Shown here piece after piece: positions 1-63,300 of a stretch of 64,000 bases of DNA. The DNA is taken from positions 2,543,675-2,607,674 of the forward strand of contig NC_087078.1 of assembly GCF_026151205.1 (NCBI RefSeq). The letters are read 5' to 3'. Origin of the DNA: Bolinopsis microptera (taxonomy: Eukaryota; Ctenophora; Tentaculata; Lobata; Bolinopsidae). The translations under genes were made by a program, and so were the position numbers. Numbering within the stretch: the first letter of the stretch is position 1; the number at the start of each line of letters is the position of its first letter. The notes beneath the pieces are model-generated. The model saw nothing but the letters and a program-made list of their open reading frames with translations. It ran no database searches and was not told the DNA's origin.

Positions 1-175
1 GCTTCACAGTCACAGTTACAGTCACAGCTTCACAGTCACAGCTTCACAGTCACAGCTTCACAGTCACAGCTTCACAGTCACAGTTACAGTCACAGTCACA
101 GTCACAGTCACAGTCACAGTTACAGTCACAGTCACAGTTACAGTCACAGTCACAGTCACAGTCACAGTCACAATC
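1..175. repeat. Hexamer satellite (CACAGT)n
   Basis: Tandem array of cacagt with ttacagt and cttcacagt variants, filling the first ~175 bases. It lies in what would be an intron of the kinase gene that follows, because the first kinase exon seen (396) opens after a splice acceptor. It probably continues to the left of the window. Confidence 0.95.
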
Positions 176-395: not shown

Positions 396-3300
396 GTATT
401 ACAACCATAAGATGGATATATGGAGCATAGGTTGTGTTATGTACGAGATCATGACACTTCACCCCCTTTTCCCTGGTGCTAATGAAGTCGATCAGGTTTG
501 TGCTTCATTTAACCAGAAGTGTATCTTAGCAACCAAATTAATTAATCTCCAAGTATTTGTGATTCAATTTTAATTTCCTTATATTTTTTGATAATTCTCG
601 TTAGTGGTGACTTCTGCAGTTCTGCAGTGAAGCTTTTCAACAAATGAAAACAGGATATCACTGATATATAATGCAAAAACGTAAATAACAACCATTAACC
701 ATAAAATCAACTAAAACATAAAAACTTCATCTTACAAATCGGCGTACTCGAAAGTCCATCTGCTGTCCGTGTTTGAGCTCATCACCACTTCTCCGTTCTC
801 CAAAGCAAGATGATCTTCAAATCCCATGGGGATGAGTTTGGAAACAGCGCAATCTCGGGGCCTCATAGCATTCTCTTTGTCCTCGAACTTAAATTCACCT
901 CCAGTCAGATTCATGTCAGGACCGTAGGGGGTTGCTTGTGTTGTTATCATCTGCCTAGCATTCCACCTAAATCGGAGTATAGAAGCTTTGTCGTCATCCG
1001 TGAAGATCCTGCTGTTCTTACGGCTAGCCAGGGGTAATTTCAGATCGCTAGATGTCAGCGCCCAGCTTCCGGACAAACCGATGTTAAATCTTTGTGATGG
1101 GGCTTCAGGGTTGTATTTATTGGCTCCCAGCAACACATCGCTACCTTTTTTGGCGGGTATTTGGTCGAAGGAGTTTCCGCTGACATCGTTGTAGATGTTG
1201 CAGCCGTTGAGAGTCCAGGATTTAAAAACGTCAATCTCTTTAGTTCCTCCAACTATCAGCTCAAGGACGTTGTCCACTAAGTGGTATTTGGGGTAGTCGA
1301 AGGAGATGAACCTTGCATAGCTGGTAAAGAATGGGGCTGCGTTCTTTTTTTCCACCGCAATAACGTGCAGTTTACCTTTCCTGTTCTTCTTGATTCCGAT
1401 GTATTTTCCGGATTCCTCGTGACGGAGATAGATAACCATCTGGACCTTCTTGAAAGCAGGTTGTTCTCCGTTTGAACCAGCACCAAAGTCCGAGATAAGC
1501 TCGAATATTCCAGAAGAAAGGGCTGCAACTCCTTTGCAGGCTGAACCAATGAAGGCACATTTGTTCTTGGCAGTTCCCCAGTTCTTTGTATTGTTAACAG
1601 TGATGCCGTACTGTTCCTTCTCCACAAGCGTCAGCTCCAGCTCGTTCACTCCTCCCTCAATGGAAGTGAAGTAGGCATTAGCCCTGTCATAATCGTACAC
1701 AATCTTTGGGTAATAGGCCTTCTTGATGATAGCGTCAGCGCAGAGAGAACCCTTGGTAGTTTCCCAGCTGCCGTCGTCATACTTGCCCCAGTTTTTCCCG
1801 TAACTCTCCTGTATGAGCCATTTATCGTTGCTGTAGCCGATGATGGAGTTGGCATGACTGCACCCGCTGCTGCATCTCTCTCCTTCTTCCTTGCTCTTCT
1901 TGGAGAAACATGTGGTAAGTGGGCCTTCTTGTAAAGCCTCCATTGCTTTAGCTGGTGATTGAGCGGATCTTGTGCCTGCGATGATGACGAACTGGTCGTC
2001 CAGAGCGTTGACAAAGTTAGCGGGGTTCTTTTTGCCACAGTTAGCGTAGCAAGCTTTCTTTCCCTCGTCCTGCTTCACGCACGCCCTCTTTGTGTACAGA
2101 ACCTGATCTTCTGAGACAATAAACATGCTCTTCCTTGCTTGGGTGTTGACGGAATATGGCTGTACTCCCAAACACGGCTTTCCGGCGCAGTTCATGAAAT
2201 TCTGGATGGAGTAGGGGATCCAGTTCTCGGAGATGTAGGCGATCCTAGCTTCCAATGTCTGTGTCCCAGAGACCCAGCCGCAGGAACCACACATACCCTG
2301 GTTGATAGCTTTGTGCACGATGCCCTTTTCCCTGTTATCCACTACTTCAGGTAGGTGAGAAACATCAGGTTCACCAGAGTCGCTCTCCTCTTCTCCATCA
2401 TCTTCGTTGATAGGTTCGTCCTCAAGCTCCTCCTCCTCTCCGATCAGTAACTCCACTCCGGAGTAGTAGACTTCTTCATTACGAGCTAGGGCGTCCAAGT
2501 AGACCTCCTCAGAGTTCAGAATCTCTTCCATATCGTCCTCATAGTCAGCGGTCAAACTGGATACCAGGCTAGCGAAACCTCTGCTCATCGGGCCACGGCT
2601 AGTCGAGACCACTGCCACCAAAGTAAGGATTAGAAAGAGTTTCATCTTGTTGTTTCTTCGACTTCACTACTATTGAAACGATTCAAACTTAACTGCTGTG
2701 GATAAGACCTCTTATCTTTTATAGTAGCTGTATGATTCGGCTCCTCAAAAGATATGGCACGTTATTACTTATTATTGTCCTAAATTACTGAACCGTTAAT
2801 TGGTAACAATAAACTTTGGGCTGGTAATAGTAAAAAGTTCTATCGATTATCAAGTGCTCATGCTTTATCAACTGTAGAAAGATGAGGTCGGCTCCCTGTC
2901 TAAGGCTAAGCGGTGGTTTGAACAGAAGGGGTGCGGTGGGGTACATATTTAGTACTTGACTTGATGAAACAATCACATTTAGTAATTCTGACGCTACTTG
3001 GATTAGAGTTGTAATTTAACAGGGATTAGGTTTGGCAGGTGCTAACTGTTGACCGAGGACTGACTCTGGCCCTGTTCCCTAACTTTTTAGTCGGCCATGT
3101 GGTTAATTGTCTCAAATATTAATCAAATTTGGGGGCTCCATGGTACGTTATATGAAGTCAGACCTAGATTAAGATACCTGATCATCGACTGAAACAATTG
3201 ACAGCCCACCTGGGTACTAGATTATTGTCTATGGATAGATGTCTCAACAACAATTTCTCAATATTATTAATCAGTCTGTGACAAAATTTAAGTTCTCAAA

Positions 3301-11086: not shown

Positions 11087-12100
11087 TTAGTCACCAATAA
11101 GTCTTTGTCGTTCCTCTTCCCCAGAATTTATTCTAACTTCAGTTTGAGTAAAATATCTCACGAGGCCGAGGGGGGCTAATATCGTCGCCATCCTGGAGTT
11201 AAGGAACTCCCTGAAGCTGTTTAGAGACAATGTGTAAATGTAGAAGTTGGACATCAAATTTAGGGACCCAATCGCATACCCAATCCTAAAAAAGTAAAAA
11301 TGCCAGAACTGGGACATCTCCGTTGGGGCATCCTTCACAAAGTAGCTAACTGCACCGCAGATAGCTCCCGGTAGATTAGCGACAGTGAAGACAGCTACAG
11401 TGAGCACCACTGTCATCACCCCCCTCCACTGGAGTCCTCCTGGTCCTCTAGCAGTGATCTTCTTAGCTGTGATGATAATCATGACATTGCTCACCATCAC
11501 AACCACCAAACTAATGAGCGATACTAATCCGATTAAGATGAAGGTGATCTTTAAGAACCAGCTGTCTTGAGATGAAGATCTGCTGAACTGACAGGTGTAG
11601 GTCAGGTAGCTGAAGTAGATATCATCTATCTTTGTCAGGGCAGGCAGCGCTGCTAATACGAAGCTGCAAATGAAGCAGACGAGTGATGAAAAATGAGCGA
11701 TCTTTGTAGAGAGATGGACAGCTCTGAACGGATATTTCAGGATCAGCAACTTGGTCAGAGACAGCGCAACAATAAGGAGAAGGAAAGTTCCTAAAACACT
11801 GTAGGTAACACAATACTCTACACGACAGAAGAGTTTGCCGAACACCCATCTGTTCAGAGCTAGTGAGACTGCTTCCGGCAAGACAGTGAAAATCACTAGG
11901 AAGATATCAGCAAGAGCAATGTACTGAATAAACACGACCATGACTTTATGAAGATTAATTGCATTGTATCTCAAGGATCCTATCAGTATTAGAGCATCGC
12001 CTATAAGAGATGACATGGCTATGGTAGAGGTGTATGCGGTTAGAAGCTGTCGTTCTGTGGCGCTGTGGATACCATACAGGGTATAGTTATCATACTTCAT
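11087..12100 (-). CDS. Intronless class A-like G-protein-coupled receptor
   Basis: 337 residues with seven hydrophobic segments. Class A landmarks are present but changed. TM1 has GD (LIGDALILIG) in place of GN. TM2 keeps the conserved Asp (IALADIFLVIF). A Cys begins TM3 (KLFCRVEYC). The DRY position reads TKL (SLTKLLILKYPFR). TM7 ends NLMSNFYIYTLSLNSFREFL, with SNFYIY instead of NPxxY, followed by a helix-8-like FREFL. N-terminal NYT near residue 5 is an N-glycosylation site. Changed DRY and NPxxY motifs suggest unusual activation or coupling. The ligand cannot be told. Single-exon structure is common for expanded invertebrate GPCR families. No other gene within 5 kb on the right. Confidence 0.85.
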   Translation of the reverse strand: MKYDNYTLYGIHSATERQLLTAYTSTIAMSSLIGDALILIGSLRYNAINLHKVMVVFIQYIALADIFLVIFTVLPEAVSLALNRWVFGKLFCRVEYCVTYSVLGTFLLLIVALSLTKLLILKYPFRAVHLSTKIAHFSSLVCFICSFVLAALPALTKIDDIYFSYLTYTCQFSRSSSQDSWFLKITFILIGLVSLISLVVVMVSNVMIIITAKKITARGPGGLQWRGVMTVVLTVAVFTVANLPGAICGAVSYFVKDAPTEMSQFWHFYFFRIGYAIGSLNLMSNFYIYTLSLNSFREFLNSRMATILAPLGLVRYFTQTEVRINSGEEERQRLIGD

Positions 12101-15100
12101 CCTAGCTCTAGAATCGTAGAAGAAGCACCAGTGGGGTTAAAATGTAAAAGAAAAATAATGAACTAACCTCAGTAACTTGCCTAGGTCATGCCTTTGCTCG
12201 GAAAACGGTATACGATAGGACAAATATGTATGATGAGTACTACAGAGTACAGGGTGTGCCGGGGGGATCAGGTACTAATTCTACTAAGTGCCGTACGTGA
12301 CGTCGACTAAGTGCAGTTTTGGACTTTACAAAAAGGACCCACCCACCCCCTTCACGGTACTAACTGCTTTTTCGGATAATATTTAGGACACCCACCCCCT
12401 TTGGGTCAATTTAGTATTAGATGATGTTGAGTTCTTAGGTACTAGTAGTAAAAAGATAGACAGTACCGACATGGACAGTACTGAGTGCAGTCTGTCTCAT
12501 ACGTAGGACAATGTTGTCTGTGCGTCAATCAAATACCGTAAATCTCCGTTAACCTTAACAAACAAAGTTCGGTGAAAGCTTTAGGAAGATACCGGAGTTG
12601 AAGAAGAAGGAGAGTCAGGAGATAACAAGAAGGGTGGATTAAAGGACACAAAGGCCGGAAAGAGAGAAAAAATGTCAGCGATTTGTGTCTGAATTCTTTT
12701 AAATGTTGAGAGCGAGGGGTGTTAACATTTTAACCAATTCTGAGCTTCTTTCTTCAAAAATGAGCTTCTTTTTTTGGGGAAACTGTGTGGAATCTGTGAT
12801 GGAGTTCACGATCGTCTAGGCATAGACAGGTCATGTGATAAACTCGGCCTTACGAGACTTTATTTCAAGCTAAAGTTCAGCTTCTATTTAGATTCAACAT
12901 CATGTATGCCCAGTGCCCACTACATTATTCTATTATCCCAAATATAGAAAGTTCCTGAATATGCAAAATGATCTGTACGAGACTATTTGACCTGGAATAT
13001 ACCGTGAACAATTTAAAGCGAAGATTATACAGAATACGTGGAACTGTTACTATGTCAAATCGTGACGTCCGTGATAAATTGAAACATCACATTTTCTCTC
13101 TCGCTTCCATTTCATAGCAATTCAGTTTAAACTGTGACGATGAAAGAATGTTCTGGAAAATTCAGACAAATTTACCAATTATATAGTTGTTGTTTGAATT
13201 TTGATAAAATCGAGTGGATATAAGACATTTAAAGTAGAGTTACGTATTTAAGAATGCGACTAGCTGCATTATATTGCATCTAACAGTAAACAGCACGTAT
13301 CCCTCTATTCACTGCACCTGCCGTACATTTCAGTAGTTACATACCAAAACAATTGGATTCCCAAGAATCCCAAGACTTAAATATACCCACTGCTAAAAAT
13401 TTAAATAAAGTAACCCAAAATTAATTTATGTCACATGTTTGTAAGATAATTTACGTTCTGCGTGTCCATAAAATGCCAGTATCTGAAGCTATTGCCACAC
13501 GTGAGGTGTGTCAACTTTGACAGCAAGATTGTGATTTGCAACGTTATTACGTTCAAGAGCTAATATTCTATAATGGAAAACACACGATCGCATAGATTAA
13601 TAACGGAGGATATTATATCAGCTGTCAAGATAGCTAAAGGATAGCTAATAAGGTATTTTACTGCCACTGGTAATTTGCACCGGTTTGAAGTTTGTCACTT
13701 CGAGATAGGCGCGGTTTGACACTTTTAACAGTAAAAACTTTGAAATTAAATAAAAAATAACTATATTTGGTTCACGTTCTCTGCCAGAGACTCAGCTTGT
13801 CTGACAAATATTTGATTAAATAAATACTTCCTGAAAATATGAAACACATAACAACATTGCAACAACCTCACTGTTCTTCATTGGTATACGGTAGTGCCCT
13901 TTAAATAAGCCTTATGTTATCAAAGCATATTTATTCGGCTTTATTCAAAATATCAAAGGATACTTAAAATTGACAATTTTCTATAGAATCAGTGGGAGTC
14001 AGTGGGATGACTTGGTAACCTAGTAACGGTCAAATGTTCGTTATAATACAGAAACTGTCGTCCTCAAAAGGTTCCCACTTCACAGGGTTAAAGTATCATA
14101 AAGAAATGACGTCAAGCAACTAGTTCATTTGAATCACAGGCTTTCTTTTATGATGCTAATCCGTTAAAAATGCATATTTATAATACGGTCCCACTACCAT
14201 TTATCTAATGGCCTTGAGAATCTAGGTTTAACTTTAAAGTATTAGTGTTTTAAATATAGTTCTGCGTTGTAAATCAAAGGAACCTGAAGACTTTATCAAA
14301 ACCTGACTTTATCATAACCTTTATATCAGTATTTTCTAAAGTCGGACCCACAGCATAGTACCTTATAGTGTACTGATTATACTGATTTATGATAGATAAT
14401 CAGAGTGCATACTGCATAGTCTGCCTATTATTGATCATTTGATCTGTTCCAGACAGTTTAATAAGCTTGTGCTCGTTAAGTGACCATAATTTGACAAAAT
14501 ATGATACACCCAAATTTACGAGATGATACACCCAAATTTACGAGATGATGACAAAATCGCACACAAAAGTAAGTACAATTAGGGCGTGTGATATGTGTAA
14601 CATTAGGCTCATAATTAGCGGGATAATACATGCGTAAGAAAGCTAATAATTAAGGGGATAATAATATGTAAAATAAGGCGTGCAATTAAGGGATAAAAAG
14701 GCGTGTAATTAAGGGGATAATTTATGCGTAATTAATTAAGGGAGTAGTGCCAAGGACCCCACCATCTCTCATATCCGGGTTGAAAGCTCGTATACACTAT
14801 ACATTGTGATCTATTAATAGTAACTCACGACACACACGTGCAGTGTGTACACAGATATCAGCTGTATATATCTTATCATAGTACATTTAGGGAGTGCATT
14901 TAGTACATTTAGTACATTTAGTATATAGTACATTTAGGGAGTGCCTTGTATTTAAAAGTAGTATCTTCCTGTTCAGATCACAGATGAGTGTACAATTTGA
15001 TATATTATACGAGCGAATGTATGATATATCATTGTTCAAGTTACATCAATTCTAGTATTAACAAATAAATTTTGGTATTAAAATGGAAAATGTTGTATGT

Positions 15101-34563: not shown

Positions 34564-36312
34564 TTACGTCCCATGGTCGCTGTACTGGCAGGAAATATGA
34601 GAGGGAGAAGGAAACGTTGTAGAGTAGGTAGGTGAGATAGTGGGATCAGCAGGTGTGACAACAGATTCACCAGGTGAGAAGGTGAGAGGAGCTGATGGTT
34701 GATAATTGGGGAAGAAACTGGGAAGTAATCTGGAACTGGAAAAAAAGGGGTCAGCGAAATTCAGGGGCTTTACAAATGTGAAAGGCTTCACGAATGGCAG
34801 AGGCTTAACAAAAATAGGTCCTCCAACGCAACTGTTTTGGACGTAATTCGAAGCCTGACTGAAACTGCTTTCGTGAGAATGATGTGATTTCTCTTCGATA
34901 TCGTTCCGCTGATACGGTTTTTCGCCTGTATGAGTCATTTGATGGTAAACCAGTGTTGATATGTGGCTTGCACTGTACGAACATTCAGAGCATTTATACG
35001 GTTTTTCGCCTGTATGAGTCATTTGATGTTTAACCAATTGTGATTTTCGGATTGCACTGTAGGAACATTGAATGCATTTATACGGTTTTTCACCGGTATG
35101 AGTCCACTGATGATTAACCAGGTCTGATTTTCGGCTTGCACGGTAGGAACATTCAGAGCATTTATACGGTTTTTCACCGGTATGAATCCGCTGATGTTTA
35201 ACCAATTGTGATTTTAGGATTGCACTGTACGAACATTCAGAGCATTTATACAGTTTTTCACAGATATGAGTCCGCTGATGTTGAACTAAGTTTGATTTTT
35301 GGCTATTTGCACGGTAGGAACATTCGGAGCATTTAAACGGTTTTTCACCGGTACGAGTCCGCTGATGTTGAACCATGTCTGGTTTTTGGCTTGCACGGTA
35401 GGAACATTCAGAGCATTGGTACCATTTTTCGCCTGTATGAGTCATTTGATGTTGAACCAAGTTTGATTTTTGGCTTGCACGGTAGGAACATTCAGAGCAT
35501 TGGTACGATTTTTCGCCTGTATGAGTCCGCTGATGTTTAACCAGGTCTGATTTTTGGCTTGTATGGTAGGAACATTCAGAGCATTTATACAGTTTTTCAC
35601 AGATATGAATCCGCTGATGTTTAACCAATTGTGATTTTAGGATTGCACTGTACGAACATTCAGAGCATTTATACAGTTTTTCACAGATATGAGTCCGCTG
35701 ATGTTGAACTAAGTTTGATTTTTGGCTATTTGCACGGTAGGAACATTCGGAGCATTTAAACGGTTTTTCACCGGTATGAGTCCGCTGATGTTGAACCATG
35801 TCTGGTTTTTGGCTTGCACGGTAGGAACATTCAGAGCATTGGTACCATTTTTCGCCTGTATGAGTCATTTGATGTTGAACCAAGTTTGATTTTTGGCTTG
35901 CACGGTAGGAACATTCAGAGCATTTGTACGATTTTTCGCCTGTATGAGTCCGCTGATGTTTAACTAGGTCTGATTTTTGGCTTGCACGGTAGGAACATTC
36001 AGAGCATTTGAAAGGTTTTATGCCGGTATGAACGCCTTGATGGGAAACTAAAGACGTTTTTCTGCAAGCACTGTAGGAACATTCAGAGCGAATGTAAGCA
36101 TTTTCACTGGTATAAACCGATTGGTGTGGAACTAATGCTGATTCCTGATTGGGACAATACAACTGAGAAACACCATTCGAATACACTTCTGATTTAATAG
36201 ATAAGTTATCTTCGGACTCCTTCTTAATCTCCGTCTTGATCAATTCTGGTGGAATACTTTCTTCTTCCATCTTCATCTCATCTTTAAGGTCTGGAACATT
36301 TTTCTGCTCCAT
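34564..36312 (-). CDS. C2H2 zinc-finger protein with internally duplicated finger block
   Basis: 582 residues, one exon. The N-terminus (1-60) is acidic and has three PsiKxE-type sumoylation motifs (IKTE, IKKE, IKSE). From about 73 to 460 lie 14 finger units of the type CSECSYRASQKSDLVKHQ with TGEKP linkers. The first lacks its first Cys and one has lost its last His (HQRTR), leaving 12 with all ligands. Five consecutive fingers occur twice with a period of 141 residues, including an odd 29-residue finger (RANSQKSN) and unusual HICEKL linkers in both copies. The Pro/Phe/Ser-rich tail (about 480-582) carries repeats of FVKP. Likely a nuclear DNA-binding factor; target unknown. No KRAB, SCAN or BTB domain seen. 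Confidence 0.9.
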   Translation of the reverse strand: MEQKNVPDLKDEMKMEEESIPPELIKTEIKKESEDNLSIKSEVYSNGVSQLYCPNQESALVPHQSVYTSENAYIRSECSYSACRKTSLVSHQGVHTGIKPFKCSECSYRASQKSDLVKHQRTHTGEKSYKCSECSYRASQKSNLVQHQMTHTGEKWYQCSECSYRASQKPDMVQHQRTHTGEKPFKCSECSYRANSQKSNLVQHQRTHICEKLYKCSECSYSAILKSQLVKHQRIHICEKLYKCSECSYHTSQKSDLVKHQRTHTGEKSYQCSECSYRASQKSNLVQHQMTHTGEKWYQCSECSYRASQKPDMVQHQRTRTGEKPFKCSECSYRANSQKSNLVQHQRTHICEKLYKCSECSYSAILKSQLVKHQRIHTGEKPYKCSECSYRASRKSDLVNHQWTHTGEKPYKCIQCSYSAIRKSQLVKHQMTHTGEKPYKCSECSYSASHISTLVYHQMTHTGEKPYQRNDIEEKSHHSHESSFSQASNYVQNSCVGGPIFVKPLPFVKPFTFVKPLNFADPFFSSSRLLPSFFPNYQPSAPLTFSPGESVVTPADPTISPTYSTTFPSPSHISCQYSDHGT

Positions 36313-37074
36313 TCTGATTCACTAAAACGACCTAACTAACGGTGCCTTTGAACAAACGTCACTAGAAAACAAAATGAATATAAGTTCGAGATATCTCCTC
36401 TCCAAAACTAAATTCCAGTGTTAATTTAGTTACATAATAGGAGGAAACAAGTAGTAACCCAGAAAATAGAAAATAAGCGAAGAAGGTTACCAAATTGGAT
36501 ACAAGTTTGGCCAAAGCAGCAGTGAGCAACTGCAGGCATTGACACCATGGAGGTATTGCTGATAATGCAGCTCATGTTACCAAGGTAACACATATTGTGT
36601 CATGTTACCTTACCACGATGAATGATGATGTTATAACAGGATCATAGCAACCGAGTGTAGCTGTGATAGTAATTATGTAGTTAAGCGTAATAATCTTGTA
36701 TAAACATAAATTGAAGAAAATGACAATGAATTCAATAAATTCAACATTTATTATACATTCATCAGATTTTAAATTCAACAGATTTTCCTAATTTCAAAAT
36801 TTCTGTCATGAATTACTAAAAACATGACTTAGTAATCAATTTTTAAAGGTTTTTTTGGGTAATCAATTTTTAAAGGTTTTTTGGGTGCAAACTGCAAAAG
36901 TGTTTTTTCAAAGATTCCTAACTTTGTGCAGTGGAATATTTGGTAATTCATACCCAGCCCCATTCTCTCCGTAACAAACCGTTAGTTAAGTTACAGTTAT
37001 TTGTTATAGATTTTGAGTTACTCAGTTACATATACCCCATATAATTATAAATATAAATTCTGGTGAGCCATTTG

Positions 37075-37412: not shown

Positions 37413-37831
37413 TTAGGTAAAAGCCCAATAATCATTTACCTGTAATATTTATTAATTACACTTTAATTAATCAATAGGTAATTAAACTTATTAATCATTC
37501 TACAACCCAGGTAAGATTCCCTCATGGTATTTTGTGACGTACAGATTGACCATTGTATATCTGATGAAATATTAATAGGTCTGTATATTCAAACTAATGA
37601 CGGACATTATTAATAATGACGGGTACCCTCATATAATTCCTCATACACTACTGACGGGTGAACGATTTATGTTCAAATTCCGGATTATTATAGAACTATA
37701 CGTACTGTGTTAATGAGTGTAAGCTATCAGGCATCTTTTTCAAATATTAGTACTACATTCACTTGCAAGAGCTACCTGGAATACCAATCACAGTATTTTG
37801 ATAATAGCGATATATGTAATATTTGCTTTTA

Positions 37832-38196
37832 GGGGTCGTTCACATATTACGTAATCAGCCGAGGGGGGGGGGGGGGTTTCAAATGCTTACGGTTGATTAC
37901 GGGGGGGGGGGGGGGTTTTGGTCGTTGATTACGTAATCAAAATTTTAATTTTTTACCGATTTTCGAAATACCAATTGGACAATTTTTGTTAATTATGTAA
38001 TCATAATTTTCGTTTTTTAAACCAATTTTCGTTTAGTAAGTGCTTTGCGATTATTTCATCCATTAATCCGTTGTGATAGCTTTTAATAAATAATAACGTA
38101 ATATAGGAGGGGGGGCCGGGGGTCAAACCTTGATTACGTAATATAGGGGGGGGGGGGGGGGGGGGGGGGGTTCGGTCGTAATATGTAAACGACCCC
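37832..38196. mobile_element. MITE with 20-bp TIRs, TTA target duplication and poly-G tracts
   Basis: Left end ggggtcgttcacatattacg and right end cgtaatatgtaaacgacccc are inverse with one mismatch. TTA flanks both sides (37829-37831, 38197-38199), as in PIF/Harbinger-like insertions. Inside are three G runs of about 14 to 27 bases beside attacgtaatc motifs, so the strand could form G-quadruplexes. No coding capacity. Confidence 0.8.
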
Positions 38197-38472
38197 TTAC
38201 TTTTAGGAAGATATTGATATATCAAAATAGAAAATTTAGCACGTTAACTCTGCAAGAGCTGAAATCTTTGCTTGGATCGTATTGAACTAACATTTCAACG
38301 ATCTCGATCAGCACCCAATCAATGAGTTACAGATTTATAACAGACAATCGAGGTTACTCTCAGCAAATTGGGATAAAGCTAGAGCAATCTTTGGAGCCAA
38401 TCAAACACAGAATGAAATTAAGTATTGCAAACAGTAATTTCAGACAACTAATAATTATAAAGAGCGCCTCAT

Positions 38473-38568
38473 CACGTGACATAACACCCACGTGGGCGCC
38501 CACGTGGTCAAGTGGCCGCCCGGAGCTGATTTGGTGCAGGGAAACAAAGCAAGCTAAAAGGTATAAAT
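38473..38568 (+). promoter_or_regulatory. Promoter with three CACGTG boxes and a TATA box
   Basis: CACGTG at 38473-38478, 38489-38494 and 38501-38506, evenly spaced, then TATAAAT at 38562-38568. The TATA box is 91 bases before the ATG of the peptide gene. The E-box triplet suggests control by a bHLH or bHLH-Zip factor. Confidence 0.6.
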
Positions 38569-38658
38569 GTGGCAGATTCTGTAGCACTGCCTCACTCTCA
38601 AAGTTTGACTCGGTGATTTTACTACAGAATTTCAAGTTTCCTCAATCACCATCTCATC

Positions 38659-39210
38659 ATGATCAAGTCCTCAGTATTCTTTCTGCTAGCGTAAGTTATC
38701 ATCATACTGATACAGTATATTCTCGATTTACTGGGCCTGATTTACTTCGCCAGTTATGGGTTTTATATGTACCGGCTGTTTTGAAATTCATCGCAAATGG
38801 ATCACCAGTCCAAACTGCAAGTTCATTACCTTACAATTCTACAGATCTGAAATTTACCATCATTTCAGTTCTCTGTTCCTGGCAATGATAGCGGAGTTAG
38901 TTTTAGTGGAATGTGGTGTAATAACCGGCGGTGAGGAGAGTTTGCATACACCCATTCTGGGATCTGAAGAGGAGCAGTGGCCGGCATGGCCAAACTGGTG
39001 GGGACGGGGTGCAAACGGGGTGAGTTTATTTTAACTAAACTTATTAAACAACCATCCTGATCCAGTGATAATGTTTTATGTTGTTAGTGTTACATAAATA
39101 GAGTGGCTCTACCATATCTTAGTTCGTTTGATAATGATTGAAGCCGGAGGTCCCCAGGTTATGTAATGTTATAAAATGTCATACATTTGCAGGGAGCTAA
39201 CCCGCAATAA
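38659..39210 (+). CDS. Small secreted precursor, candidate amidated neuropeptide
   Basis: Three exons: 38659-38690, 38869-39019, 39193-39210 (TAA); phases agree and give 66 residues. Residues 1 to about 27 are a signal peptide (MIKSSVFFLLASLFLAMIAE). The short mature part holds SEEEQWPAWPNWWGRGANG. Gln after a run of Glu, then Trp-Trp-Gly-Arg, is the layout of a peptide with N-terminal pyroglutamate and C-terminal amide: Gly gives the amide and Arg the cleavage site. Cleavage at acidic residues before Gln is typical of cnidarian neuropeptide precursors. Only one copy is present, unlike most cnidarian precursors. The promoter has a TATA box and three E-boxes; AATAAA lies at 39457. The family is not one I recognise. 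Confidence 0.6.
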
Positions 39211-40033
39211 GGACACTAACTGTCGATGAACGATAACAAAGTGGAAGAGAAACCGAAAGAAAAACTAAAGGATTATTCATTTGAACCAGCCTGTTTATGC
39301 AAGCTCAACCTTGTGATTGTGATTGTGTATATAATGTGGAAGTTTTGGTTTGAATCAATATGAATTATGTGTTTCATTTATTGATGTTTTAACATCTGTA
39401 GTGATGAACCATGAAATATAATCAGATTCTGGACTTCTGTGCTCACACAAAACTAGAATAAAATAAAATACAACAATTAAATTATCGATTCAGAATAAAT
39501 CAGATTTCACTCTAAAATAAGTTCGGTGGTTGTGACTCAATCTTATGACATGTAATCCCATTTTTCTCAATCTCACTTGCGTGCTATTTGCTGTAATCGC
39601 GATCAAATCACAGTATTTTTCAATCTAAATCATGACCTATCTGGATCATGATTAATAATCCGATTTTTAATAAGTTAATCGGGCGACGCCAGCACCCCTC
39701 CTCGGACAAACATTTCCCAATTTCAAATTTCATCTTCCGGGATTATTGATCATAACGTCCATTCCCCATATCAAACAGTAGGTTTTCCAGGTAAGTGGGA
39801 AAGTGAAGAGAACAGCAGCTAACCACGTGCACCGGGAGAATGCTAACTGAAAGTGAAAGTGAAAGTGATGATAATTACTGTTAGTGTTACTGATCATTAA
39901 ATTGAATGTCGCTGATCAGTAAATTTATAATTACAATTTACAGGTAAATATTGAGTACAGAAAGTCCGATAATGGCAAACTCCTATTTTAACCATGAATT
40001 AGCATTAAATGGCACTGTTCCAACAATTTGGCT
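39211..40033. other. No recognised gene
   Basis: AT-rich stretch between the peptide gene and the TSPO-like gene. A last TSPO exon was sought here on the minus strand and not found. Confidence 0.4.
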
Positions 40034-60332: not shown

Positions 60333-63300
60333 TTATTTACTATTTTTACTCTTTACACCGTACTCATACGCAGTCTTAGGTCTACGAGGTATACCAGTAG
60401 TACTACTAGGCAAGGATCCGGTCCCCCGACCCCGACCCCGTCCCATACTAACTACTGGCCTATCCTCAGTCTCAGGTTTGTAGCCCCTGGCCCTGCTCCT
60501 TCCCACAGAGGGTGCTGCACTTCCAGCCATACCACCTGGTTGCCTGAATGGTGAAGTCTGGGGCGAGGTGCTAGGTGGGTTATTTGACTGATTAAACGAA
60601 GATGGTGGATTATAGGGAGATGGTGGATTGTAGGGAGATGGTGGATTGTAGGGAGATGGTGGATTGTAGGGAGATGATTGATTGTAGGGGGATGAACGTT
60701 GTTGATATTGGGGAGGGCTAGAAACTGATTGAGGAGACATAGACCTCACCGTACTGGGAGAAGAGGTGAACGAGTTAACAGGGGTGGAATAGTTGTTGTA
60801 CTTGGGGATGGGCTCATTATACGGCTTATCGTAAGTAAAATCTTCTTTGGAAGGGATATTGGGACGTCTGGGGTTTGAGTGAGAGTGGCTGGCAGAGGCT
60901 CCAGAGTTGCCGGGTGAGTTAGCCGAGGAGAAGGAGTTCTCAGAGTGGTTGGAGGAAAAGTGAGTGTTGGCTGTAACGAAACTGTTAGCGGAGCCGAAGG
61001 AGTTGGTGTTGGAACCGATGCTGAAGTTGCTAACTTGACTCAAAAGTTCGGGGGTTTCTGCTCCCATTTTTTGCTTGGCAGAATACCCTGTATCGTACGT
61101 TGGTCTCCGGGGTGGATCAACATTTCTCTTATGCTGATAGGATCCCACTGAGAAGCTTGAAGCTACTGAGGTGGTATCCTCAAAGTCTTGATCTCTGTCT
61201 CCTGCAACTGAAGACATGACACTGTACGTAGAAGCAGCGCGGGAGGCTGCACAGCTATTATCAAATCCTCTGGGGTAGTGGTGACCCTCTGCGATATCAT
61301 ACTGGTAGTAATCGTACATTATTTCTGAGAGAAAGTAGAAGTATTTTCTGACGTTCCCAATAGCGCAGGCTATCTTGTTCGTTTGGCAATGAAAGTCACA
61401 CCTGTTTCCTTGAACAAAATCGAACTTCGTTTCGAAGAGGAGTCGTCTGATTTGAGCAAAGGTCGGTGGAGTATTCTTAGTAAATTTTACTAGTTCTTCG
61501 ATGAAACTCTCGAGTTCAAATACCCTGACTTTGAATTCTTGCTCTACCCTGGACCCCAGCCATGCCAAACAACTTTCAACTTTCTTGGCTTCACTCGATC
61601 GAGCAAATACCAGCGGTCTTTTGGGGTTGTTAGCTCTCATTAATGTTACCAACTTGCTGACATCTCCCTCATAGTCACTGCTAGCCAGTGGGAAATCCTT
61701 TGGCTTGATTTCGTGCTCTAGTTCGCATCGTTCTAGAGCCTCTGCAAAGTGACCAGGTCTGAAATAAAAATAAGCGCTTAAAACATAAGTAAGTAGTTAT
61801 ATTGAAGAAAACTCAAACATTGAGCTACGAGACCACGTGACTTTTAACAATTGTTACCAATAATTGTAACAGAAAATTGTATAACATTTTATTGAATGTC
61901 AAACGAACCTAAGAGGACCAGGATCAGGGAAGAAATGATATAATCCCAAAATTCCGCCCCTAATTGAACACTTGATGACTGCTATCTCACAAGGTACACA
62001 TTCACCATCTAGATAGTCCACTATTGACAGAGCGTCTATCACATAAAACTCTTTGTCAATTACTTCCTCACAACGTTCTAGCTCATCACGGACCAACTGC
62101 AGGGAGCACAGGCTATATCAAATTAATAATCTAAATCAAAATTCATATCCAATTAATAATTTATATTAAATATTTTATATTAAATATACTAAAAAAGATG
62201 AAATACAGTGAATGCGCTGTGGGTACCAGAAATTCATGAGAAAGTCGGAGTTAAATAAAAAGATTTAAAATTTGGATTCAAATAATTTGATGCGACTCCA
62301 ACCTGCCTCTCCCGTTCTCGACGAGATGACTCCGCTTTCTCAGCTTGATTCCTTTCAGAGATATACTTCCTGTTACAGTCCATCCTGAGAGACGGGTCCC
62401 CGCCGTTCACATTCCTTCCCAGCTGTCTGGCATGTTCTTCTTTAGCTTTCTGGTTCCACATCCTCTTCTCGTCCGGGGTCAGCTTCCTCCAAAGTGGGTC
62501 ACACAACTGCACAAGCATCTGGGGACCTGAGAGGAGGATTTTAAAAGTTCTGAAGATTGTTGTAAGTTTTAAGGGATACAGGAACTCGACGATATGAAAA
62601 TCTCTTATATAAGCTATCTATCAAGATTTGAGTAAGAATAAGCAAAACACTCATTCGAGCTCACTGCTTAAGGTAACATCTTTCCTGAACCTAGCAGTTC
62701 CGATCCATTATTTTTGAGCTTGTTCAGGCATGTTTAGATCGACTGATCGCGCGTTAACTGTCTCAGCTCACAAGACGCTCGCGCGCTGCGCGATCGACTA
62801 TATTATACTGTTTTAAATAGAGTATTTCAAAATGGCTTTCGCGCGTTACAGATCAAACTATGACAAGTTCGATAGCACCAGTTTGGCTGGCAGGAAGGCT
62901 GTCAGAAAACAACAGTGAAATACAGACAACAAGTTGCATGACTGGTCATAGGAACAACACACAAGCTAAAAACTATTATTTCTATCTATGAAACCGTTTC
63001 ATTAGACTAGAAAGTCATTATATAATATGTGGAATGTGGAAATGTATTATATATTATGTTTGGTGTGAGAAAATGCGGACAAGCGCAGCTATCTCACTGA
63101 CCTACGTGTCCTAAGAAAATAGTTCTCGCAAAATTATGAGTAATATCGTAAACATGCATTCGTTTATATGGAGTGAGTTTAATGCACTTAGGTAGAATAG
63201 GACACAATGATAATGAATGATATGTGGTTTTATGCCTCTGTGTGAATACATTATGTATTGCAGGGTGTGTAATACGGTGATAAGGACCAGTACTCTGTAT

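What the first reader, a model, noticed from the sequence alone, without database searches (positions are those of the whole stretch)
38659..39210. Undescribed-looking amidated neuropeptide gene (Gln-Trp-Pro...Trp-Trp-Gly-Arg)
A 66-residue precursor has a strong signal peptide and one short mature region. Seen: SEEEQWPAWPNWWGRGANG. Known: in cnidarian and ctenophore precursors, Gln after acidic residues gives pyroglutamate, and Gly followed by Arg gives a C-terminal amide. Inferred: a product of the form pGlu-WPAWPNWW-amide, which I cannot place in a known family. TATA box and three CACGTG boxes support a tightly controlled gene.
Basis: partly seen in the sequence, partly recalled or inferred. 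Interest (0 to 1): 0.8.

Follow-up and report, generated by a model that had tools for sequence, protein, structure and literature searches.

The report
Trp-rich comb-jelly amidated neuropeptide gene
A comb jelly, most likely Bolinopsis, carries a small three-copy gene that looks like a precursor for a very short tryptophan-rich nerve hormone of a kind already proven in comb jellies, though this particular peptide was not found in the papers I could search.

Summary
In detail: window 38659-39210 encodes a 66-residue precursor in three exons with GT/AG introns, a hydrophobic leader, an acidic spacer ending EEE, and QWPAWPNWW-G-R. The genome is a ctenophore related to Mnemiopsis, most likely Bolinopsis microptera. 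New evidence: (1) two further intact copies lie 6.4 Mb away on the same chromosome; both keep EEE and NWWGR but lack three codons (WPA), encoding QWPNWW-G-R. (2) In the same genome, the genes for two mass-spectrometry-proven ctenophore peptides, VWYa and NPWa, have the same layout (62 and 68 residues, three exons, leader, acidic spacer with EEE, one C-terminal amidated peptide). VWYa's proven start follows EEE directly, as predicted here. (3) A PAM amidating enzyme is encoded. Best reading: pGlu-WPAWPNWW-amide, a new member of a known kind. Conservation is only suggestive, because the copies are young. The precursor resembles NPWa beyond shuffled controls, but intron positions differ, so kinship is open. 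Expression, processing and orthologues in other ctenophores were not testable, and published supplementary peptide lists were not readable.

The parts
38659..38690 (+). coding exon 1: start of the hydrophobic leader (MIKSSVFFLLA), ends in phase 2
   Evidence: identical in both paralogs
38869..39019 (+). coding exon 2: rest of leader, acidic spacer, peptide block SEEEQWPAWPNWWGR, GANG
38975..39001 (+). predicted mature peptide QWPAWPNWW (pGlu at Q, amide at last W)
   Evidence: letters checked; processing inferred from VWYa and NPWa
38978..38986 (+). nine bases TGGCCGGCA (codons WPA) absent from both paralogs; the TGGCC direct repeat suggests slippage
   Evidence: exact placement within the repeat is arbitrary
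39002..39007 (+). Gly (amide donor) and Arg (monobasic cleavage site)
39193..39210 (+). coding exon 3: rest of the tail (GANPQ) and stop
38562..38567 (+). TATAAA, 97 bases before the ATG, kept in all three copies
38473..38506 (+). three CACGTG boxes, kept in all three copies
37651..40015 (+). segment shared, in pieces, with the paralogous loci at C7 9.0 Mb
37832..38196 (.). about 0.36-kb element with inverted ends GGGGTCGTTYACATATTACG, absent from both paralogs
   Evidence: empty site printed for one copy; both copies by BLAST

Best explanation
The locus is a working neuropeptide gene of a lobate ctenophore. The leader sends the precursor into the secretory pathway (inferred). A protease that cuts after acidic residues cleaves after EEE, exposing Gln, which cyclises to pyroglutamate (inferred). 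Cleavage at the Arg and trimming leave a C-terminal Gly, which PAM turns into an amide (inferred). The product is pGlu-Trp-Pro-Ala-Trp-Pro-Asn-Trp-Trp-amide ([M+H]+ 1252.569), released from peptidergic cells to act on an unknown, probably G-protein-coupled receptor (inferred). Two paralogs would make the shorter pGlu-Trp-Pro-Asn-Trp-Trp-amide ([M+H]+ 898.400). Shown here: the gene model by sequence, three intact copies, the shared layout with the VWYa and NPWa genes of the same genome, and a PAM gene. Not shown: transcription, processing, neural expression, receptor.
For: Gene model. Three copies found by protein search at E up to 10 and by DNA search, all with intact CDS of 201, 192 and 189 nt. 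Coding differences between the window and copy c9004: 4 substitutions in 192 aligned bases (1 silent, 3 amino-acid changes) against 20 of 348 in introns, Fisher p 0.051; none of 36 aligned bases of SEEE..GR differs, against either paralog. VWYa gene at C4: MKCFVVMVTLLVLSQSASLNSRESMDETIMENVEQEVEAGEVAEEE|ARVYKGYNGGNRVWY-G-stop. Its peptide equals the mature B. mikado peptide given in PMC9525235, so EEE directly precedes that start. NPWa gene at C13: 68 aa, three exons, ending NPW-GRK-stop. PMC9525235 section 6 reports acidic residues as major cleavage sites, and pyroglutamation. A gene with both catalytic parts of PAM in one frame lies at C8. No Pfam match for the precursor at E 0.01.
Against: No transcript or mass spectrum was available. 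The selection signal is weak, and the 5' flank is as conserved as the CDS (10 of 462). Both coding indels are multiples of three, but so are 5 of 9 non-coding ones between the window and c9004. The peptide itself changes length between copies. The Arg is a single basic residue, whereas NPWa ends GRK. No glutaminyl cyclase was recognised among the four M28-family matches: two are glutamate-carboxypeptidase-like and one aminoacylase-like by PDB search; the fourth was only read by eye and looks nicalin-like from recall. A split gene could be missed. The leader was judged by hydropathy only.
Confidence: 0.72

Rival explanations
1. The gene is a diverged paralog of the NPWa precursor, and its mature product starts like NPWa (IGSDIK...), giving the 15-residue LGSEEEQWPAWPNWW-amide rather than the 9-residue pGlu peptide.
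For: The two precursors align over their whole length (31% identity over 67 columns, 25 bits), with LGSEEEQWPAWPNWWGR against IGSDIKLAPGGGNPWGR. Score against shuffles: P 0.0005 (local) and 0 of 2000 (global); P 0.0016 and 0.0014 of 5000 shuffles with EEE and WWGR held fixed. The window precursor shows no such signal with VWYa (P 0.13 and 0.53).
Against: Intron positions differ: phases 2,0 here and 2,1 in NPWa, whose second intron lies inside the Gly codon before SDIK. The spacer alone is not significant (P 0.12). NPWa against VWYa, with no claim of kinship, also reached P 0.014 in one of four tests (global, full length), so shared layout alone can lower P. Genome searches with either precursor do not find the other.
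Confidence: 0.22
2. It is a small secreted protein or peptide that is not an amidated neuropeptide (for example an unprocessed acidic peptide of an epithelial, mucus or adhesive cell, or a defence peptide), and Gly-Arg is incidental.
For: Trp- and Pro-rich short peptides also occur among defence peptides (recalled). No neural expression is shown, and layout alone does not prove processing.
Against: The predicted product carries no positively charged residue, unlike cationic Trp-rich defence peptides (recalled). EEE before the peptide and Gly-Arg after it match proven precursors of the same genome.
Confidence: 0.15
3. The real coding frame is another one: the 200-codon stop-free stretch 38286-38888 on the + strand that runs through promoter, exon 1 and intron 1, and the peptide gene is a by-product.
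For: Long stop-free frame with an ATG at 38322 (188 codons).
Against: In both paralogs the frame shifts in intron 1 and stops after 143 codons, while the spliced peptide CDS stays intact in all three. The frame runs through the TATA box and the E-boxes.
Confidence: 0.03
4. The locus and its copies are decayed or silent duplicates with no function.
For: Recent local duplication, and indels inside and beside the peptide block.
Against: Three of three copies keep frame, stop codon, GT/AG splice sites, TATA box and E-boxes, and introns differ more than the 5' flank (p 0.0085) and, marginally, than the coding part (p 0.051).
Confidence: 0.06

Closest known systems
VWYa precursor of ctenophores (ML02736a in Mnemiopsis; ARVYKGYNGGNRVWYa of Bolinopsis mikado, PMC9525235)
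   Same: In this genome: 62 aa, three exons, leader, acidic spacer ending EEE, one C-terminal peptide, Gly amide donor, aromatic C-terminus.
   Different: No sequence kinship above strict shuffles; longer peptide without N-terminal Gln; Gly is followed directly by the stop; intron phases 1,1.
NPWa precursor of ctenophores (ML215411a in Mnemiopsis; IGSDIKLVPGAGGNPWa of B. mikado, PMC9525235)
   Same: In this genome: 68 aa, three exons, leader, acidic spacer with EEE, single C-terminal Trp-amide peptide followed by GR; weak full-length similarity.
   Different: C-terminus NPW, not NWW; intron positions differ; one locus found; product of 16 residues in B. mikado and, by the genome sequence, 15 here.
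Cnidarian pGlu/amide neuropeptides such as Nematostella QWamide (named in PMC9525235; structure recalled)
   Same: Acidic cleavage sites, pyroglutamate and amide as the general processing style.
   Different: No sequence relation was tested here; PMC9525235 reports that its cluster analysis found no similarity of ctenophore precursors to cnidarian or bilaterian ones.
Myoinhibitory peptides / allatostatin B, W(X6)Wamide (recalled)
   Same: The window peptide has Trp at 2 and 9 with six residues between and a predicted C-terminal amide.
   Different: Single copy, N-terminal Gln, no dibasic flanks; the paralogs lose the spacing. With four Trp in nine residues such a match is expected often.
Adipokinetic hormone / RPCH, pGlu...PNW...amide (recalled)
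   Same: N-terminal Gln, PNW at positions 6-8, predicted amide, nine residues.
   Different: In AKH the peptide follows the leader directly (recalled); here it follows an acidic spacer, and the paralogs lose the spacing.

Membership tests
Ctenophore amidated neuropeptide precursors (as a kind) | Signal peptide | tested here: inconclusive
   Strong hydrophobic stretch by hydropathy; no signal-peptide predictor was on hand.
Ctenophore amidated neuropeptide precursors (as a kind) | Acidic or basic cleavage site directly before the peptide | tested here: met
   EEE|Q, as EEE|ARVYKG.. in VWYa of this genome, whose mature start is given for B. mikado. The site is present; the cut itself is not shown.
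Ctenophore amidated neuropeptide precursors (as a kind) | Gly amide donor followed by a basic residue or the end | tested here: met
   WW-G-R in all three copies.
Ctenophore amidated neuropeptide precursors (as a kind) | No other protein domain | tested here: met
   No Pfam match at E 0.01; no PDB sequence match at E 10.
Ctenophore amidated neuropeptide precursors (as a kind) | Amidated product detected, expression in peptidergic cells | not testable with these tools
NPWa family | C-terminal NPWamide | tested here: not met
   NWW in all three copies.
NPWa family | Sequence similarity of the whole precursor | tested here: inconclusive
   P 0.0014-0.0016 against strict shuffles, spacer alone P 0.12; NPWa against VWYa reached P 0.014 in one test.
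NPWa family | Shared intron positions | tested here: not met
   Phases 2,0 against 2,1; the introns lie at different places.
Myoinhibitory peptide / allatostatin B | W(X5-7)Wamide | tested here: inconclusive
   Present in the window copy, absent in both paralogs; definition recalled.
Myoinhibitory peptide / allatostatin B | Several copies with dibasic flanks | tested here: not met
   One copy, flanked by EEE and GR; definition recalled.
Adipokinetic hormone / RPCH | Peptide directly after the signal peptide | tested here: not met
   About 20 residues of spacer lie between; definition recalled.

The most novel reading that the evidence does not exclude
A lineage-specific, Trp-rich ctenophore neuropeptide family that arose from an NPWa-like precursor and is still expanding: local duplications within one genome have already produced two different mature hormones (9 and 6 residues) by an in-frame slippage deletion inside the hormone itself, making ligand diversification visible at its start.
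Probability: 0.22. Interest if true: 0.58.

Novelty: new member of a known kind. Interest (0 to 1): 0.42.

Why it matters
Few ctenophore neuropeptides have been proven: the peptidomic survey I could read reports 13 precursors in B. mikado (PMC9525235, section 6). Such peptides bear on whether nervous systems arose once. A further candidate with exact predicted masses, three gene copies and two ligand lengths is directly testable by re-searching published spectra, and the paralogs offer a natural case of a hormone changing length after duplication.

Tried and rejected
Literature: full-text searches for PNWWG, PNWWamide, NWWamide, WPNWW (one hit, a fish SNP paper seen only as a listing) and for QWPNWW, QWPAWPNWW, WPNWWa, pQWPNWW (none) found no description. 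These cover only the main text of open papers. Supplementary files were not readable, and PMC9525235 section 6 names ten precursor genes of the 13 it reports for B. mikado, so the other three may include this gene. The Mnemiopsis survey (Curr Biol 2021) is not held. Papers: PMC9525235, sections 6, 9, 13, 21, 25 and passages elsewhere; PMC10826244, PMC7617566 and PMC10232365, passages only; all others as search listings.

Promoter: the bacterial promoter/terminator scan does not bear on an animal gene and was not used. CACGTG as a mark of tight control was rejected.

Controls that failed or were weak: the 16-residue VWYa query found nothing as a protein, because an intron splits it; a DNA pattern found it. 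The NPWa query alone gave only E 0.353 and was accepted after reading the exons. A pattern for RWFa gave one hit, which proved to lie in a repeat, so RWFa was not found. A pattern for further [DE]QW..WWG[KR] blocks gave five matches, the three copies and two others, one a tandem-like repeat; the backward control pattern also gave five (2+3), so beyond the three copies nothing exceeds chance. FGLa, WTGa and the other named peptides were not looked for.

Rejected readings: the frame 38286-38888 (broken in both paralogs); a cationic defence peptide (no positive charge); membership in the MIP or AKH families (layout, and the paralogs lose the spacing).

A mended count: one search set the peptide-block bounds three to four bases off (38967-39008; 0 of 33). 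One search recounted 38963-39007: 0 of 36 aligned bases against either paralog, nine gapped columns set aside.

Full report
What is there. The window lies at C7:2543675-2607674 of a 264.65-Mb genome in 232 contigs. TATAAA lies 97 bases, and three CACGTG lie 158, 170 and 186 bases, before the ATG. The motif acid-Gln...Gly-basic occurs 18 times in the six frames of the window (3-10 in 12 shuffles). Below a strongly hydrophobic stretch it occurs only here, and in none of the 12 shuffles; that filter was set after the fact.

Whose genome. The genome is a ctenophore. The ligand-binding part of one of its ionotropic glutamate receptors matches the Mnemiopsis protein ML032222a with 433 bits; the next different molecule scores 225 bits. 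The alignment shows many differences, so it is a relative and probably not Mnemiopsis itself. Two other receptors of the genome scored best against kainate receptors. The NPWa peptide of Bolinopsis mikado is present with one substitution and one residue fewer, and the VWYa peptide letter for letter. Chromosome number and size fit Bolinopsis microptera (13 chromosome-scale scaffolds, about 254 Mb by k-mers; PMC10232365, passages). The species name is an inference.

Paralogs. A protein search at E up to 10 and a DNA search each list three places: the window, C7:9004345-9004892 and C7:9010829-9011373 (gene ends computed from the offsets). The tool calls such counts lower bounds. The two latter copies are 99.6% alike over 2.3 kb and about 6.5 kb apart; the window copy is 92-93% like them. 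The shared segment is about 2 kb in pieces (within window 37651-40015), that is the gene with its promoter, introns included, so it was copied as DNA. All three copies keep frame, stop, GT/AG sites, TATA box and CACGTG boxes. Both other copies lack nine bases inside the peptide, changing QWPAWPNWW to QWPNWW; one of them has also lost three bases in the spacer (PIL to PM). The nine bases lie between two TGGCC repeats, so a slippage deletion from the long form is the simpler history (inference).

Selection. Window against c9004, gapped columns set aside: coding 4 of 192 differences, introns 20 of 348 (Fisher p 0.051), 5' flank 10 of 462 (coding against it p 1.0), 3' flank 15 of 339 (p 0.22). SEEE..GR has 0 of 36 against either paralog. 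The coding changes are one silent and three amino-acid changes (G to S, H to Q, A to G), all outside that block. This is suggestive at best. The 5' flank is as conserved as the coding part and more so than introns (p 0.0085), which may reflect a constrained promoter or uneven conversion. In-frame indels add little: two of two coding ones are multiples of three, but so are five of nine non-coding ones.

Same layout as proven genes. I used the same genome for positive controls. VWYa (C4) is a 62-residue, three-exon precursor, MKCFVVMVTLLVLSQSASLNSRESMDETIMENVEQEVEAGEVAEEEARVYKGYNGGNRVWYG. Its mature form ARVYKGYNGGNRVWYa is given for B. mikado in PMC9525235 (section 9), so that start follows EEE. 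NPWa (C13) is a 68-residue, three-exon precursor ending NPWGRK. Both gene models are my own splicing of genomic DNA. A third control, RWFa, was not found. The window gene, with EEE before Gln and WW-Gly-Arg after, fits this mould. PMC9525235 states that acidic residues are major cleavage sites in B. mikado and mentions pyroglutamation (section 6). A gene with both halves of the amidating enzyme PAM in one frame is at C8. No glutaminyl cyclase was recognised among four M28 matches, so the pyroglutamate step rests on analogy or on spontaneous cyclisation.

Kinship to NPWa. The window precursor aligns with NPWa over its whole length (31% identity, 25 bits). It scores above shuffles at P 0.0005 (local) and 0 of 2000 (global), and at P 0.0016 and 0.0014 when EEE and WWGR are held fixed. 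Against this, the spacer alone gives P 0.12, NPWa against VWYa also reached P 0.014 in one test, intron positions differ, and neither genome search finds the other gene. I leave kinship open; if it is real, the mature peptide might begin at LGSEEE.

What does not hold. CACGTG occurs 39 times in the window against about 7.8 expected, with two other triplets within 30 bases; under uniform placement at that density any such triplet had a chance of 0.0073, so clustering is general here. The boxes are kept in all three copies but do not by themselves show tight control, and neither control gene has one within 400 bases upstream. Resemblance to W(X6)Wamide and to pGlu...PNW hormones is recalled and fails on layout and on the paralogs.

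Verdict. The best reading is a ctenophore amidated neuropeptide gene, a new member of a known kind. The peptide was not found in open main texts, but supplementary lists were out of reach, so it may already be listed there.

Noticed in passing
window 37832-38196: About 0.36-kb element with inverted ends GGGGTCGTTYACATATTACG and long G runs, absent from both paralogs: probably an insertion just upstream of the window copy after duplication.
   Followed up: partly
window, whole: CACGTG is about five times over-represented (39 against 7.8 by a first-order model); some lie in tandem repeats. Cause unknown.
   Followed up: partly
window 735-2663, - strand: Papain-family protein (Pfam Peptidase_C1) in one open frame of 643 codons, with a motif read as CGSCGW where papain has CGSCW (recalled), and about 340 C-terminal residues without a Pfam match.
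   Followed up: no
window 11090-12136, - strand: Rhodopsin-type GPCR in one open frame, nearest solved structures opioid and somatostatin receptors; a possible peptide receptor 26 kb from the peptide gene, no evidence of pairing.
   Followed up: partly
window 60336-61796 and 62237-62617, - strand: Maelstrom domain with an HMG-box-like exon upstream (by eye; no Pfam match at E 0.01): a likely ctenophore Maelstrom gene.
   Followed up: no
window 34567-36318, - strand: Array of C2H2 zinc fingers in one open frame, with 84-base repeat units about 84% alike.
   Followed up: no
G000 C3, C6, C8, C12: Many ionotropic glutamate receptor genes read in long single open frames, several in clusters (32 matches listed, frames up to 989 codons).
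   Followed up: no
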